Assembly (NCBI GenBank): GCA_902621855.1 | Contig: CACNNQ010000003.1 | Location: 122,665-186,664 of the forward strand | Reading direction: 5' to 3' | Length of the DNA: 64,000 nt | Source: an uncultured Alphaproteobacteria bacterium | GTDB lineage: Bacteria; Pseudomonadota; Alphaproteobacteria; HIMB59; GCA-002718135 | Part shown: piece after piece, positions 51,246 through 55,685 of the stretch | How positions within the stretch are numbered: position 1 is the first letter of the stretch | Layout of the letters: each line of letters begins with the position of its first letter | The notes under the pieces: generated by a model | What the model was told of the DNA's origin: nothing | What the model saw: the letters and a program-made list of their open reading frames with translations, nothing else | Databases searched by the model: none | Program-made: the position numbers and the translations under genes

Positions 51246-51320
51246 GCGGGCGTAGCTCAGGGGTAGAGCGCAACCTTGCCAAGGTTGAAGTCGAGGGTTC
51301 GAATCCCTTCGCCCGCTCCA
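51246..51320 (+). tRNA. tRNA-Gly (GCC anticodon), intact with encoded CCA
   Basis: GCGGGCG...CAACCTTGCCAAGGTTG...GTTCGAATCCCTTCGCCCGCTCCA folds to a complete cloverleaf. Confidence 0.97.
51270..51320 (+). repeat. att-like direct repeat copy 1 (3' part of functional tRNA-Gly)
   Basis: 51-bp GCAACCTTGCCAAGGTTGAAGTCGAGGGTTCGAATCCCTTCGCCCGCTCCA, identical to copies at 52423 and 54918. Confidence 0.93.
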
Positions 51321-51347
51321 AATATTGAGCGGGTTAGATTCAAGCAC

Positions 51348-51364
51348 TCCACTTACGATCCAAT
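51348..51364 (+). repeat. arm-site-like motif copy 1
   Basis: TCCACTTACGATCCAAT; related copies at 52340 and 54826. Confidence 0.5.
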
Positions 51365-51396
51365 AGAGCTTAGCTTTTCCTAGAAAGAGAGAACTT

Positions 51397-51540
51397 ATGG
51401 CTACTATTCAAAAGCGCAAATACTTAAATAAAACTAGTCACCAAGTTCGTATAAGGCGAGCTGGTGTAAGAACCATTACGAAAAGTTTTATGAACCGAAC
51501 CGACGCTAAAAGTTGGGCAAGGCACATGTCCAAATTATAA
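51397..51540 (+). CDS. free-standing tyrosine-integrase N-terminal (arm-DNA-binding) domain, or truncated integrase
   Basis: MATIQKRKYLNKTSHQVRIRRAGVRTITKSFMNRTDAKSWARHMSKL* (47 aa, below track cutoff); 76 nt downstream of the tRNA. Confidence 0.75.
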   Translation: MATIQKRKYLNKTSHQVRIRRAGVRTITKSFMNRTDAKSWARHMSKL

Positions 51541-51603
51541 TTTCAACTAAATTTTAAATTAATTTGCAATTTAAACTAAATTAGTTTTAATCAACCAATA
51601 TTT

Positions 51604-51918
51604 ATGAGAAGTCTAACTCTATTTTTTTGTATAATTTTTTTTTCAACAAGTTCCAATTCTAACACCTATGCACTAAAGATTAAAGAATATGGTCTTGCCG
51701 ATTTAACAATCAAAGTTAAAGAATATGGTCTTGCAGATGAGACTTGGAAAGTAAAAGGAGCATGTACAGGAGCAATTTCATATACTAGTGTTAAAATTAA
51801 AGAATACGGCACTGCAGATCTAACGGTAAAAATAAAATCTTACGGTCTAGCAGATAGAAAGGTTTGTATAAAAAATCCTAATGATCTTCCTTATTGGTTT
51901 TTAAATATGATAGATTAA
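51604..51918 (+). CDS. secreted small repeat protein, possible 7-bladed septoil-knot (DUF6150-like) protein
   Basis: Signal peptide, then repeats KIKEYGLADLT / KVKEYGLADET / KIKEYGTADLT / KIKSYGLADRK. Confidence 0.55.
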   Translation: MRSLTLFFCIIFFSTSSNSNTYALKIKEYGLADLTIKVKEYGLADETWKVKGACTGAISYTSVKIKEYGTADLTVKIKSYGLADRKVCIKNPNDLPYWFLNMID

Positions 51919-51926
51919 CGTTAGGA

Positions 51927-52253
51927 TCACCAACACGTAGTTGTTGAATTAATATTATTTCCCCAAATAGAACCACTTGAACTACAAGTTGTTGTCTGAG
52001 GAGTAAGAGATTGATTTAGTTGATCAAGCGAATTTGAAAGTTGTCTGTAAGCCTCAGCTTTTCTCTGAGCTCTTTGATTATCTAAATTCATTCTACATGT
52101 TCCATAAGCATCAGTACCTGGTTTGAAACCATAACCTTTACAAGTTGCGTCATCAGCTGCAATTCTTTTTCTATTGTTTTCAGCAATTTGTTCCGCAGAT
52201 AAACATGAAAATAATATCTGGGTAAGAATAAAAATAATAAAAATTTTTTTCAC
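51927..52253 (-). CDS. small lipoprotein, unknown function
   Basis: Lipobox ILFSCLSAEQ; GYGFKPGTDAYGTCRMNLDNQRAQR motif. Confidence 0.65.
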   Translation of the reverse strand: MKKIFIIFILTQILFSCLSAEQIAENNRKRIAADDATCKGYGFKPGTDAYGTCRMNLDNQRAQRKAEAYRQLSNSLDQLNQSLTPQTTTCSSSGSIWGNNINSTTTCW

Positions 52254-52339
52254 AACAGAATTCTAACCAAAATTCTTAATTCTATCCAGCATAAAAAATA
52301 AATTACATACTTTTTCTGTTATAATCTAAATAAATAAGA

Positions 52340-52356
52340 TCCACTTACAATCCAAT
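52340..52356 (+). repeat. arm-site-like motif copy 2
   Basis: TCCACTTACAATCCAAT, 67 nt before att copy 2. Confidence 0.5.
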
Positions 52357-52405
52357 ACAATAATACTTTCTCACCAATTCTTTTTAGTTTCTCTAGGAAA
52401 AGGCC

Positions 52406-52473
52406 GATCTCAATTGTACATGGCAACCTTGCCAAGGTTGAAGTCGAGGGTTCGAATCCCTTCGCCCGCTCCA
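52406..52473 (+). repeat. att-like repeat copy 2 (3' tRNA-Gly fragment plus 17-nt element-specific flank)
   Basis: 68 bp identical to 54901-54968; tRNA-identical part is 52423-52473; no tRNA 5' half, so not functional. Confidence 0.92.
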
Positions 52474-52561
52474 AAAATTAGCCGTTTTTTCCGATCAAGT
52501 TTTTAGATAGCACCTCAGAGTCGAGCGTGTGTCGATAATCACTTTCAGAAAGAGAGTGAAA

Positions 52562-52640
52562 ATGGCGTATATTAAAAAACGTAAACATAAATTTTCAACA
52601 ACCAATGAGATTGTTTATTATTTTTTATTCAGCAGTTTAA
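52562..52640 (+). pseudogene. second tyrosine-integrase N-terminal stub
   Basis: MAYIKKRKHKFSTTNEIV... after AGAAAGAGAGTGAAA leader resembling the AGAAAGAGAGAACTT leader of the first stub; coding similarity stops where the exonuclease gene lies. Confidence 0.6.
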
Positions 52641-53199
52641 TTAATAATTTTGCATATTCTCTGGCATCATCTATGGCTTTATGCGTATGTTTTGTATTAT
52701 CATGCAATTCTAGAGAGTAATCATCTCTACCTATGTCTTTATAATCTTTTTGTAGCACAGCAGCAGCATAGGATTTGATATCAAAGGCTGCTTGTCCATT
52801 CTTATCAAAAAAAGGCATAGAGAAAGGAATTTTTTCTAATCGTTCTGTAAGAAAAGTTTGAATATACCAATTGATCCACATAAAATCTAATGGAGCTGGA
52901 TGAGCAGCCATAACTCGTGGGGTTGGTAACGTGAGAAGCCAATCACCAAATTTATTCATTCCTTCTTTGGGTGAGACTTGATTATGCTGAGTATGTTTTA
53001 AAGCTTCTGGCGCTTCTGTTGTAAACCAATGCATAGTAGCGGGGTGAGGTTTGGCATTTTCTAGTGGCAAGAAATTAATTTCACATTCTCCAAAATTTTC
53101 TCCTTCTTTATTAACGGCTACAGCACCAAGGCTTATCATAGAATGTGTTCCTGGAATAGGTCCGTCCGCTTCTATGTCACACACAACATAAGTAGTCAT
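52618..53199 (-). CDS. DEDDh 3'-5' exonuclease (RNase T/DnaQ-like)
   Basis: YVVCDIEADGPIPGTHSMISLGAVA, AAHPAPLDFMWINW, HKAIDDAREYAKLL; start moved from track 53223. Confidence 0.88.
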   Translation of the reverse strand: MTTYVVCDIEADGPIPGTHSMISLGAVAVNKEGENFGECEINFLPLENAKPHPATMHWFTTEAPEALKHTQHNQVSPKEGMNKFGDWLLTLPTPRVMAAHPAPLDFMWINWYIQTFLTERLEKIPFSMPFFDKNGQAAFDIKSYAAAVLQKDYKDIGRDDYSLELHDNTKHTHKAIDDAREYAKLLIKLLNKK

Positions 53200-53247
53200 A
53201 GTTGAATTATTATCACTAACCACGGAGATTGTTAAGGGTTCTGGTCA

Positions 53248-53428
53248 ACCACACTACCACAGTTAAAACGCCCTTTTTTTGTTCTTACCTAAATCGCAAA
53301 CGTAAACATTTAATTTATTTATTAGATTTACGAAATGAACTGTGGTCTGTGGTGAACTGTCAAAAAACTCAAGTAATGATTGAAAAAATAGACCCACAGT
53401 TGAATTTAATAAACTGTGGTACTGTGGT
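53248..53428. repeat. CTGTGGT repeat cluster
   Basis: ACCACAG at 53256; CTGTGGT at 53340, 53347, 53414 and 53422; ACCACACTACCACAGTT is a near inverted copy of AACTGTGGTACTGTGGT. Confidence 0.75.
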
Positions 53429-53456
53429 AACGCTCCTTTTACACTCCAATTTATAT

Positions 53457-54653
53457 TTATAATTTCAATTCAAAAACAGATGTTGATAAATTTATTTTTT
53501 TTTCGTCTACTAATTTTTTGGGATTTTGAATTTTTTCGAATATCTTAATTTTTTCTGTAAGTGCATTATTCACTAGATATATATAAAATTTATCTTTTTC
53601 TTTAACAGCAGCGTTCCACTCGTTTTCTGTAATATCTAAGGAATTTATCGATTGCCCTTTAGTAGACTTTACTTCAATAAAAATTTCATTTCCGTCTTTA
53701 TCATATGAAGTTATATCCCAACCTGGATATTCATTTATTTCATAATGTTTTTTTATTTTTTTTGCTAGATCTTCTCTGCCAACACTCTTTAAGTTTTGAT
53801 ATTCATTTGAATACACATGTCTCTCTCCTGCTAGGCCCACCTTTTTAGATTCTTGGGTTCTTCTTTTAGATTTTGCTTTAAAGACTGTTGAAATTTTTCT
53901 CTTAGTTTTATTTTTTTCTCTTGGGGTAAATAAAGGTACCTCATACCCAACTTCTACATTTACTGGTTTAACCACATAAGCTTCAGAAATAATATCTAAA
54001 TTTTCAGCCCTTGGATCTTCAACAATTGAGTCATAAGACTCTAAAAAACTATCCAAGTCTTTATACAAAATCTCATTAGATACAGTATTAATATCATAGG
54101 ATTTTGCAAAACAAGTCCCACTTTGAAATGCGCTTACTAAAAATCTCGACGAACCTTTTATAGGTTCTTCAAAACTATTCTGATCTTCCAGTAATTCAAT
54201 TTCACTATTTAAACTTTGAAAGTTGTATTCATTAAATAATTGTCTGAAATGATCGGTAGCCAACTTAATTTTTTCTAAAGACTTATTGTTTCTTCCATAA
54301 ATTAACTCAAATTGATAAGCTCCTAAACCCAGACATAGATATAGTTTCTCTGCTGACCTTGAAAATAAATAAACAATATAAAAGCCTTCTCTTGGACTTT
54401 CTGTAATACTTTTATTCATTATTGCTAACCAAGGAACAGCTGACAAATTTCCTTCACCGACAGACGACTCAACTATATATTTTTTATCATTAACTTTATT
54501 TTTAATTTTATCAGACCACTTATCTATTACTAGATCATAGATAATATGATCTTTTTTAACAATTTTAATATCATATCCTGTTTTAGACTTGCTTTGACAA
54601 TGCAATCTATAAGATTTCCAATTACTTGATATTTGTCTAAGTATATCTTCCAT
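53457..54653 (-). CDS. MrcB_N (DUF3578)-DUF3883 restriction-like protein
   Basis: N-term SSVGEGNLSAVPWLAIMNKSITESPREGFYIVYLFSRSAEKLYLCLGLGAY (MrcB N-terminal-like); C-term VGLAGERHVYSNEYQNLKSVGREDLAKKI...YPGWDITSYDKDGNEIFIEVKSTKG (DUF3883, PD-(D/E)xK-like D...EVK). Confidence 0.8.
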   Translation of the reverse strand: MEDILRQISSNWKSYRLHCQSKSKTGYDIKIVKKDHIIYDLVIDKWSDKIKNKVNDKKYIVESSVGEGNLSAVPWLAIMNKSITESPREGFYIVYLFSRSAEKLYLCLGLGAYQFELIYGRNNKSLEKIKLATDHFRQLFNEYNFQSLNSEIELLEDQNSFEEPIKGSSRFLVSAFQSGTCFAKSYDINTVSNEILYKDLDSFLESYDSIVEDPRAENLDIISEAYVVKPVNVEVGYEVPLFTPREKNKTKRKISTVFKAKSKRRTQESKKVGLAGERHVYSNEYQNLKSVGREDLAKKIKKHYEINEYPGWDITSYDKDGNEIFIEVKSTKGQSINSLDITENEWNAAVKEKDKFYIYLVNNALTEKIKIFEKIQNPKKLVDEKKINLSTSVFELKL

Positions 54654-54753
54654 AAAATATATCTTAACACCTTAAATCAACAAAGTTTAGAATTAATAAA
54701 AAAACTAAAGCTCAAATTAGATTACTAATTGTGGAGAAACTAAAATTTAACTA

Positions 54754-54817
54754 TCAAACGAGTTGCCCCTTTGCCGGTTTTCAAGACCGGTGCTTTCAAC
54801 CGCTCAGCCACACCACT
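54754..54817 (-). pseudogene. truncated tRNA-Ser (UGA), 5' part only
   Basis: Reverse complement AGTGGTGTGGCTGAGCGGTTGAAAGCACCGGTCTTGAAAACCGGCAAAGGGGCAACTCGTTTG has D arm, anticodon arm (CTTGAAA loop) and part of the variable arm, but no T arm or 3' acceptor. Confidence 0.8.
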
Positions 54818-54825
54818 TCTAACGT

Positions 54826-54840
54826 TCCACTTACGCACCA
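54826..54840 (+). repeat. arm-site-like motif copy 3
   Basis: TCCACTTACGCACCA, 77 nt before att copy 3. Confidence 0.45.
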
Positions 54841-54900
54841 GTTGGATTACAAAGTCTTAAAATCTTGTAAAATTTTCTTGCACAAATAAAAGAAAATTTA

Positions 54901-54968
54901 GATCTCAATTGTACATGGCAACCTTGCCAAGGTTGAAGTCGAGGGTTCGAATCCCTTCGCCCGCTCCA
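54901..54968 (+). repeat. att-like repeat copy 3 (3' tRNA-Gly fragment plus 17-nt flank)
   Basis: 68 bp identical to 52406-52473; tRNA-identical part 54918-54968. Confidence 0.92.
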
Positions 54969-55054
54969 ATAAACCCCACAAACTCTCTATTTTGTCTGTT
55001 AAGTTTTTTTAAAACTTTCTAATTTTAAATCCTTATTGTGACACCAGTGGAACA

Positions 55055-55077
55055 GAAAAAATAGTCTTTTAAAGACT
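55055..55077 (-). terminator. rho-independent terminator of the 2OG oxygenase gene
   Basis: AGTCTTTTAAAGACT hairpin followed (minus strand) by a T-rich tract. Confidence 0.5.
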
Positions 55078-55082
55078 TCTAA

Positions 55083-55685
55083 CTAATTTCTTTTCAAAAC
55101 TAAATTAATGTTAAAACTGATGACTATTCTCTCTTCATTTGAAAAATTCTCATTTACAGAATGATCTAAATAACTAGGAAATAATACTAGTCCACCCTCA
55201 ACAGGAGTTATAGAATTTACCATTGCATTAAGTGAGTTTGGCTTGTTTGTTCTAGGGTGGGAGAAGACAGGGGCAGGTCTCGGGTCATAAAATACTATAT
55301 CACCACAATTTATTGGAGCTCTTACATAATAAGCTGCACTAATATCACTATTGCCATGATGGTGTCTGGCATTTGATGCTCCGCCGGTATTAATTATGGA
55401 CCACATACTTGAAATTTTTACAAATTGATTTTTAATGTCCCAATCCATATCATTGAGTAGCTGATTAATCTTTGGAGAAATCATATTAATGAAATCCACT
55501 ACATTTCTTTCCTTCAAATTAAAATCTTGTGAATGCCAGCCTTTTACATTACTCCTTATAACTCCTTTATTGTCTTGAGCCTGTAAACTTTTAATATAAG
55601 TGTATATTTTCTCATTTGTTTCCTCGTAGTTGTCCAGTTTAGACGTCCAAACAGGAGTAGAAAAAAAAAGATTTGGACCAGACAT
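55083..55685 (-). CDS. 2OG-Fe(II) oxygenase-like protein
   Basis: NARHHHGNSDISAAYYVRAPINCGDIVFYDPRP...LFPSYLDHSVNENFSNEERIVISFNINL; start moved to MSGPNLFFSTPVW. Confidence 0.82.
   Translation of the reverse strand: MSGPNLFFSTPVWTSKLDNYEETNEKIYTYIKSLQAQDNKGVIRSNVKGWHSQDFNLKERNVVDFINMISPKINQLLNDMDWDIKNQFVKISSMWSIINTGGASNARHHHGNSDISAAYYVRAPINCGDIVFYDPRPAPVFSHPRTNKPNSLNAMVNSITPVEGGLVLFPSYLDHSVNENFSNEERIVISFNINLVLKRN

What the first reader, a model, noticed from the sequence alone, without database searches (positions are those of the whole stretch)
51246..54968. Tandem tRNA-Gly-bounded mini-elements: three identical 51-bp tRNA 3' repeats with no complete integrase
Seen: functional tRNA-Gly(GCC), then exact copies of its last 51 nt at 52423-52473 and 54918-54968. 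These delimit segments of 1153 and 2495 bp. Each segment opens with an integrase N-terminal stub and carries one or two cargo genes; neither has a complete recombinase. Established: tyrosine integrases often target tRNA 3' ends and leave such repeats. Inference: either two decayed islands, or small cargo cassettes moved in trans by a related integrase elsewhere. Perfect repeats alongside lost integrases make the in-trans option worth testing, in a genome type where mobile elements are expected to be scarce.
Basis: partly seen in the sequence, partly recalled or inferred. Interest (0 to 1): 0.82.

Follow-up and report, generated by a model that had tools for sequence, protein, structure and literature searches.

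The report
tRNA-anchored gene cassettes mobilised in trans
Behind one glycine-tRNA gene, streamlined marine bacteria carry rows of tiny DNA cassettes, often a single gene, that keep the landing signals of an integrase but not the integrase itself and have nevertheless moved recently between species, which suggests a borrowed-enzyme, integron-like way of swapping genes.

Summary
In detail: tRNA-Gly(GCC) at 51246-51320 and two exact 51-bp copies bound segments of 1153 and 2495 bp, each opening with an integrase 5' remnant, neither with a recombinase. The locus is a hotspot in the order: 59 of 102 same-genus genomes carry at least two copies of the tRNA's last 23 bp. I catalogued 65 such segments in related genomes; 47 have no integrase trace, 9 a weak trace or truncated stub, 9 a full integrase. 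Most integrase-less segments are 0.6-2 kb, commonly with one gene. Next to the att repeats lie paired 11-bp direct repeats placed like integrase arm sites. Their unit differs between element types but matches at the two ends of one element (p<5e-5, also for elements without integrase). Window segment 1 sits 97.9% identical in a genome with 78% core identity, at another array position behind a 1403-bp integrase-less cassette. That cassette is itself a clean presence/absence insertion elsewhere. Best reading: non-autonomous, CIME-like cassettes moved in trans by integrases of related elements; segment 2 is a recombinant of two element types with unmatched arms. The helper enzyme and excision are inferred. 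New variant of a known kind.

The parts
51246..51320 (+). tRNA-Gly(GCC), functional; its last 51 nt (51270-51320) are the attachment core of segment 1
   Evidence: ARAGORN; exact repeats
51348..51365 (+). left arm-type site of segment 1, TCCACTTACGATCCAATA (two TCCA units 11 bp apart)
   Evidence: pattern found (<=1 mismatch) in 10 of 163 order genomes, each one an integrase-stub element, reversed control 0
51397..51540 (+). 47-aa integrase N-terminal stub (MATIQ type)
   Evidence: stub lineage 89-100% identical, nearest full-length integrase 79% identical over 73 aa
51604..51918 (+). cargo ORF, 104 aa, signal-like N-terminus, internal KxKxYGxAD repeats; no family
51927..52253 (-). cargo ORF, 108 aa, lipoprotein-like; weak PHROG of unknown function
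52340..52357 (+). right arm-type site of segment 1, TCCACTTACAATCCAATA (17/18 identical to the left arm)
52406..52473 (+). conserved att half GATCTCAATTGTACATGGC plus exact 51-bp tRNA-Gly 3' copy (52423-52473); the half-site is shared by many elements
52520..52540 (+). left arm-type site of segment 2, GTCGAGCGTGTGTCGATAATC (GTCGA units 11 bp apart)
   Evidence: same type precedes the full integrase of G128
52562..52609 (+). about 16-codon integrase start (MAYIK type) fused to the end of the exonuclease gene
52618..53223 (-). cargo: RNase_T / DEDDh-type exonuclease, 201 aa; a chromosomal gene between scpB and tatA-like genes in other genomes
53457..54653 (-). cargo: MrcB_N + NOV_C protein, 398 aa, weak similarity to candidate defence proteins
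54757..54810 (-). 5' part of a tRNA-Ser gene abutting the right arm site
54825..54841 (+). right arm-type site of segment 2, TTCCACTTACGCACCAG: TCCAC type, not matching its left arm but matching the left arm of segment 1
54901..54968 (+). conserved att half plus exact 51-bp tRNA-Gly 3' copy (54918-54968)
54969..55092 (+). left-end remnant of a third, TGTGACA-type element; arm degenerate at 55036-55055
   Evidence: 91% over 124 bp to the left end of an element in G016 (L052)

Best explanation
The locus is a tandem array of non-autonomous integrative cassettes at the 3' end of tRNA-Gly(GCC). A cassette consists of an attachment core (23 bp to the full 49-51 bp of the tRNA 3' end), a pair of 11-bp-spaced arm-type sites at each end, and usually one or a few cargo genes. 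Inferred mechanism: a tyrosine integrase made by a related element elsewhere (in the same cell or brought in later) binds the arm sites of the same type at both ends, excises the cassette as a small circle at the tRNA repeat, and inserts it at the tRNA of a new host or at an array repeat. The integrase gene lies just inside the left arm, so it can be deleted without harming the cis-acting sites; truncated stubs are what is left. Segment 1 is such a cassette. Segment 2 is a homologous recombinant: left half of a GTCGA-type element and right half of a TCCAC-type element, joined in a shared exonuclease gene; only the composite of segments 1+2 has matching outer arms. Shown: repeats, arm pairs, end matching, absence of integrase, transfer between diverged hosts, presence/absence polymorphism. 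Inferred: binding, excision in trans, identity of the helper.
For: Hotspot: exact 23-bp tRNA end in 2-5 copies in 59 of 102 same-genus genomes, reversed control 0. Of 65 att-bounded segments, 47 have no integrase trace, 9 a weak trace or stub, 9 a full integrase; 26 of the 56 without full integrase carry one ORF >=60 aa. Arm sites: 11-bp-spaced repeats at both ends of 9/9 full-integrase elements; left of 26/47 and right of 24/47 integrase-less ones, against 4.3% of control stretches; full integrases at tRNA-Gly, Leu, Arg, Val, Gln, Thr and Ala loci have such a pair just upstream of the gene. Left and right arms of the same element match better than re-paired ones: z 7.3, p 5e-5 (the limit of 20,000 permutations), for 30 non-redundant elements without any integrase trace. 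Mobility: window segment 1 is 97.9% identical in G106 (core DNA 78.4%) behind another cassette; window/G029 99.4% against 77.4%; G014/G106 99.9% against 84.9%; G032/G069 97.0% against 82.2%. Insertion polymorphism: a 1.4-kb integrase-less cassette lies between the tRNA and the next element in G014 but not in G023; removing it in silico restores the G023 junction (99% over 295 bp). The GGGACA arm pair: 50 sites in 33 genomes against 5 for the control, and none of the 30 fetched loci shows an integrase belonging to it. Autonomous relative: G128 carries a 12.8-kb GTCGA element with full integrase and Prim-Pol/helicase.
Against: No excision, circle or integration event was observed; only assemblies were available. 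No full integrase with segment 1's exact arm type was found in 163 order genomes, in 85,488 GTDB species genomes by arm pattern, or in IMG/VR. About half of the integrase-less segments give no clear arm pair at one or both ends. Segment 2 has mismatched arms. Genomes are incomplete single-cell assemblies, so integrases may lie in missing parts. Loci L103-L116 were chosen because of integrase hits, so the 9 full and 9 stub counts are enriched; among the 46 segments of the other loci the counts are 5 full, 4 stub/trace and 37 none. One of the 9 'stubs' (G050, 19 aa, E 8e-4) is doubtful.
Confidence: 0.78

Rival explanations
1. Fixed relics: separate islands integrated in tandem, lost their integrases and now only decay or are inherited.
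For: Integrase stubs are pseudogenes with different truncation points and in-frame stops in G029 and G085. Some att copies and arms are degenerate. The third element after 54968 is a remnant.
Against: Integrase-less segments are 96-99.9% identical between hosts whose adjacent core DNA is 77-85% identical, and occur in different array contexts. The clean 1.4-kb insertion in G014 versus G023. Matching arms at both ends of elements with no integrase trace.
Confidence: 0.1
2. The cassettes spread by ordinary homologous recombination: incoming DNA pairs through the tRNA gene, the repeats and flanking genes, and no integrase acts on them today.
For: Segment 2 itself looks like a homologous recombinant within the exonuclease gene (770 bp 99.5% to G071, 2312 bp 99.4% to G029). 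Genome exchange by recombination is common in marine streamlined bacteria (general knowledge).
Against: High identity stops at the att repeats while the flanks are only 77-85% identical. Att repeats can be 23 bp, short for RecA-type exchange. It does not explain why the two ends share element-specific 11-bp-spaced sites placed like those beside active integrase genes.
Confidence: 0.1
3. The 11-bp repeats are promoters or regulator sites of the cargo, not integrase arm sites.
For: In the CAATATAG class the left pair lies 15-30 bp upstream of the cargo start codon.
Against: The same unit recurs at the other end of the element, next to the opposite att and often behind cargo of either orientation; all 9 full-integrase elements have it at both ends.
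Confidence: 0.05
4. Single-cell amplification chimeras created the tandem arrangement.
For: The named hits are single-cell type assemblies, where amplification chimeras occur.
Against: The same junctions recur in independent genomes, for example segment 1 in G106 and the 1.4-kb cassette in G014 and G106.
Confidence: 0.02

Closest known systems
CIMEs (cis-mobilizable elements) and accretion, described for streptococcal ICEs
   Same: att-bounded segments without recombinase, stacked in tandem, thought to move with an integrase supplied by a neighbour
   Different: CIMEs as I know them are remnants of ICEs, usually several kb to tens of kb (from memory). Here units go down to about 0.6 kb with one gene, form varied arrays, and keep matched arm sites at both ends.
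Dehalococcoides ssrA genomic islands (PMC3146451)
   Same: Tandem islands separated by 20-bp copies of an RNA gene's 3' end; 15 islands there lack an integration module and were suggested to be CIMEs
   Different: That target is tmRNA and the integrase DsiB is compared with Ccr serine recombinases; the islands carry rdhA operons. No arm-type end code is described in the passages I read.
Additive flexible genomic islands of Ca. Methylopumilus (PMC10872708)
   Same: Streamlined aquatic bacteria; recurring copies of the last 20 nt of tRNA-Lys; islands of 330 bp-42 kb, 1-63 genes
   Different: No mechanism, arm sites or transfer in trans is given in the passages I read.
Tycheposons (Hackl et al. 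2023, known to me from citing papers and memory)
   Same: tRNA-targeting tyrosine-recombinase elements of ocean bacteria with cargo; the G128 element with integrase and Prim-Pol looks like one
   Different: Tycheposons carry a recombinase and are reported as 4-200 kb (PMC10872708). The cassettes here have neither recombinase nor replication genes. Membership was not tested.
Integron cassettes / CALINs (PMC11389934)
   Same: Arrays of mostly single-gene cassettes without integrase, mobilised in trans
   Different: Integron integrase acts on folded attC sites; here the site is a double-stranded tRNA 3' end with flanking arm pairs. Works like, not a member.

Membership tests
CIME (cis-mobilizable element) | Bounded by attL and attR of an integrative element | tested here: met
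   Exact tRNA-Gly 3' copies at both ends
CIME (cis-mobilizable element) | No integrase and no transfer genes inside | tested here: met
   no recombinase and no transfer gene recognised in segments 1 and 2; 47 of 65 segments have no integrase trace
CIME (cis-mobilizable element) | att sites still functional, mobilised by a related element's recombinase | tested here: inconclusive
   Indirect only: matched arms, transfer between diverged hosts, insertion polymorphism; no excision assay
CIME (cis-mobilizable element) | Derived from an ICE or IME by deletion | tested here: inconclusive
   Stub elements derive from integrase-bearing elements; no conjugation genes were recognised in the autonomous element examined
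Tycheposon | Encodes its own site-specific tyrosine recombinase | tested here: not met
   Window segments and most cassettes lack one; G128's 12.8-kb element has one
Tycheposon | Inserted at a tRNA gene | tested here: met
Tycheposon | Recombinase belongs to the tycheposon clade and hallmark genes are present | not tested
   No reference set at hand; G128 has Prim-Pol and AAA_25 domains
Integron cassette array / CALIN | attC sites that fold as hairpins and an integron-type integrase | tested here: not met
   The boundary is an exact tRNA 3' end shared with the host gene; nearby integrases are phage-type with tRNA targets
Prophage or phage satellite | Capsid, packaging or phage-like genes, or a match in viral collections | tested here: not met
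   Cargo families are not structural or packaging genes; segment 1's arm pattern, the MrcB/NOV cargo and the G003 integrase found no relative in IMG/VR

The most novel reading that the evidence does not exclude
A tRNA-based counterpart of integrons: a shared pool of single-gene cassettes in an order of streamlined marine alphaproteobacteria, captured and reshuffled at tRNA genes by integrases of other elements, with the element-specific 11-bp arm repeats acting as an address that decides which integrase moves which cassette.
Probability: 0.45. Interest if true: 0.87.

Novelty: new variant of a known kind. Interest (0 to 1): 0.72.

Why it matters
How streamlined ocean bacteria with few evident mobile elements keep a large flexible gene pool is an open question. 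If one foreign integrase can move many tiny cassettes that carry only its binding sites, gene exchange needs almost no genetic load. It also means that counting integrases or islands of typical size misses most of the traffic. The arm-site code makes concrete predictions that can be tested in vitro and in metagenomes. Cargo includes candidate defence genes (DUF4268/PDC-S11, Type-I-like restriction-modification genes, an MrcB/NOV protein), sulfotransferases, a transporter and many secreted proteins.

Tried and rejected
Fuzzy regex search for the core: timed out, replaced by Hamming scan. The 49-bp core alone missed a class of elements with a 23-bp att; found through the G106/G014 junctions and rescanned. 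Viral contigs: the att core hits one high-GC phage, unrelated; segment 1's arm pattern finds nothing; a GGGACA arm pattern finds 17 contigs of 38-66% G+C with only a few weak integrase-model matches, judged chance; MrcB/NOV cargo and the G003 integrase find no relatives. Phage records: only integrases below 60% identity, best about 29%. A conserved mini-protein role for the stub was considered and rejected because of in-frame stops and varying truncation. A literature search for integrase-in-trans tRNA cassettes in marine bacteria gave nothing; the HIMB59 island paper has no integrase mention and a single tRNA mention in its main text. A mean-identity comparison with 18-mers and 31 long-core elements was superseded by the 46/37/30 non-redundant sets.
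Full report
Observation. The window lies in a 1.48-Mb, 21-contig genome (88.5% complete). The same arm-site pattern finds only 'uncultured Alphaproteobacteria' assemblies. One relative in the same order is a single contig of 1,410,127 bases; from memory this fits strain HIMB59, so the window probably belongs to the HIMB59 order. tRNA-Gly(GCC) lies at 51246-51320 and its last 51 nt recur exactly at 52423-52473 and 54918-54968. The only full Phage_integrase of the genome is a 352-aa protein on another contig; similar open frames of 354-384 aa are found in many relatives. The only match to the tRNA-type integrase is the 47-aa stub of segment 1. Segment 1 carries two small ORFs without Pfam family. 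Segment 2 carries an RNase_T-type exonuclease and an MrcB_N+NOV_C protein.

The locus across relatives. The full query matched tRNA-Gly regions in most of 60 relatives; the surrounding regions were fetched. The exact 23-bp tRNA end occurs 2-5 times in 59 of 102 same-genus genomes and 2-3 times in 9 of 52 genomes of the second genus, with no hit for the reversed pattern. Empty or nearly empty sites exist: in G037 and G038 the tRNA is followed within tens of bases by a gene (cluster c9) conserved downstream in that genus. Arrays of up to six or seven repeats occur, for example in G019 and G016 (several of the G016 copies are degenerate). Att repeats come in two classes, about 49 bp or 23 bp.

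Catalogue. 65 att-bounded segments, 578 bp to 12.8 kb, were listed. With a profile built from integrases of these genomes, 9 have a full integrase (5.0-12.8 kb), 9 a stub or weak trace and 47 none. 26 of the 56 without full integrase have exactly one ORF of at least 60 aa. Cargo examples: sulfotransferase, DUF4268 (PADLOC PDC-S11), alpha/beta hydrolase, methyltransferase; judged from sequence alone, also an MFS-like transporter, Type-I-like restriction-modification genes and secreted small proteins. Loci L103-L116 were picked through integrase hits, so proportions are biased towards integrase; in the remaining loci the counts are 5 full, 4 stub/trace and 37 none.

Arm-type sites. Downstream of the left att and upstream of the right att many elements carry two copies of a 6-8-bp unit exactly 11 bp apart. 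At offset 11, near-exact 8-mers occur in 22/66 left and 18/30 right flanks against 2.1% of 5000 control stretches; other offsets are near background except offset 29, seen in the right flanks of five integrase-bearing elements. In the full set: 9/9 full-integrase elements at both ends, 26/47 (left) and 24/47 (right) of integrase-less ones, control 4.3%. Full integrases at tRNA-Gly, Leu, Arg, Val, Gln, Thr and Ala loci have such a pair just upstream of the gene. Units differ by element type: TCCAC, GTCGA, CCGACA, GGGACA, GCAGTAG, TGTGACA, GCGCCA, CGCTACA and others. Within one element the left and right flanks match better than re-paired ones: z 10.5 for 46 non-redundant elements, 9.4 for 37 without full integrase, 7.3 for 30 without any integrase trace; p is at the permutation limit of 5e-5 each time. 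In nine homologous integrase-less sulfotransferase cassettes the GGGGACA/GGGGACACT units are kept even in the most divergent copy, while much of the spacer varies. That these are integrase arm-binding sites is inferred from position, spacing and association, and from general knowledge of tyrosine integrases.

Movement. Element versus adjacent core DNA identity: window/G029 99.4% over 2312 bp versus 77.4%; window/G121 98.8% versus 77.2%; window segment 1/G106 97.9% over 1104 bp versus 78.4% (core compared over only 569 bp); G014/G106 99.9% versus 84.9%; G032/G069 97.0% versus 82.2%; G016/G102 96.4% versus 82.4%. Segment 1 lies directly at the tRNA in the window but behind a 1.4-kb integrase-less cassette in G106; the same cassette lies in front of a different element in G014. 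G023 has that next element directly at its tRNA, and removing the cassette in silico from G014 restores the G023 junction (99% over 295 bp). For G106 versus the window the same ungapped comparison gives only 51%, because of small indels next to the core; the gapped alignment is the 97.9% above. The sulfotransferase cassette with GGGACA arms occurs in several genomes and array contexts.

Lineages without a known integrase. The pattern TCCACTTACGATCCAAT (<=1 mismatch) occurs in 10 of 163 genomes, each time in an element with a truncated MATIQ-type integrase (profile matches end at positions 39 to 113); G029 and G085 have in-frame stops. The exact 19-bp version finds nine GTDB species genomes and no IMG/VR contig; their contig lengths equal those of G-genomes already seen. 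The nearest full-length integrase (G073) is 79% identical over the N-terminal 73 residues, and its element shares the right end of the MATIQ elements (94.8% over 287 bp to G030), which makes it the best candidate helper. GGGACA-N5-GGGACA occurs 50 times in 33 genomes against 5 control hits, near tRNA-Gly, tRNA-Gln and tRNA-Arg; among the 30 loci fetched for it only one has an integrase match, and that gene belongs to the neighbouring TGTGACA element.

Origin of segment 2. Its first 770 bp are 99.5% identical to a GTCGA-type element of G071 whose two ends match; from bp 135 on it is 99.4% identical to a TCCAC-type element of G029. The overlap is the exonuclease gene. Segment 2 is therefore best read as a homologous recombinant of the two; only segments 1+2 together have matching outer arms (51348 and 54825). 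The exonuclease itself is a chromosomal gene in other genomes (96-98% identity, between an scpB-like gene and a tatA-like gene in G021).

Possible helpers. G128 holds a 12.8-kb GTCGA element with full integrase, a Prim-Pol/AAA_25 protein and metabolic cargo, resembling tRNA-targeting satellites or tycheposons. No viral relative of the G003 integrase was found in IMG/VR; phage records give about 29% identity.

Known systems. Tandem RNA-gene-bounded islands without integration modules were reported in Dehalococcoides and tentatively called CIMEs (PMC3146451). Additive islands with tRNA-Lys repeats, 330 bp-42 kb, are known in Methylopumilus (PMC10872708). CALINs are integrase-less cassette arrays mobilised in trans (PMC11389934). 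What I did not find described is the combination of single-gene size, array variability and matched arm-type sites at both ends of integrase-less units; the literature search was limited to open papers and nine queries.

Limits. No experiment, no reads, incomplete genomes; arm sites undetected in about half of integrase-less ends; the helper for segment 1 unidentified. Verdict: new variant of a known kind, probably still or recently mobile as a class, with segment 2 a recombined member.

Noticed in passing
window 54757-54810 (-): A 5' part of tRNA-Ser lies directly beside the right arm site; similar inverted tRNA-Ser fragments sit beside right arms of TCCAC-type (G029, G121) and GGGACA-type (G022, G034) elements. 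It may be left from capture at a tRNA-Ser locus; unexplained.
   Followed up: partly
window 52618-53223: The exonuclease cargo is a chromosomal gene (between scpB-like and tatA-like genes in G021) that appears in two element types, so host genes can become cargo.
   Followed up: yes
window 51604-51918: 104-aa ORF with a signal-like start and repeated KxKxYGxAD motifs, no known family; conserved in G106.
   Followed up: no
window 54969-55092: Left-end remnant of a third element (TGTGACA type) with a degenerate arm pair, right end lost.
   Followed up: partly
L053 2265-8424 and L052 2261-10250: Arrays of seven and six tRNA-end repeats, several degenerate, with many small putatively secreted proteins, some of them paralogues, in the CAATATAG class.
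   Followed up: partly
L136-L146: In the second family, GGGACAAATATGGGACA pairs sit beside tRNA-Arg(TCG), in several genomes more than once, with no integrase match in the loci fetched: the same phenomenon at another tRNA.
   Followed up: partly
L059 8412-9590 and L113 7798-8978: Single-gene cassettes whose 313-324-aa proteins look related; the L059 one is DUF4268 / PADLOC PDC-S11 (E 8.7e-113), with CCGACA arms in L059 and GCAGTAG arms in L113.
   Followed up: partly
L001 1465-2523: 352-aa tyrosine recombinase beside a sirtuin-like gene; similar-length hits in many relatives suggest a resident recombinase, whose role in cassette movement was not tested.
   Followed up: no
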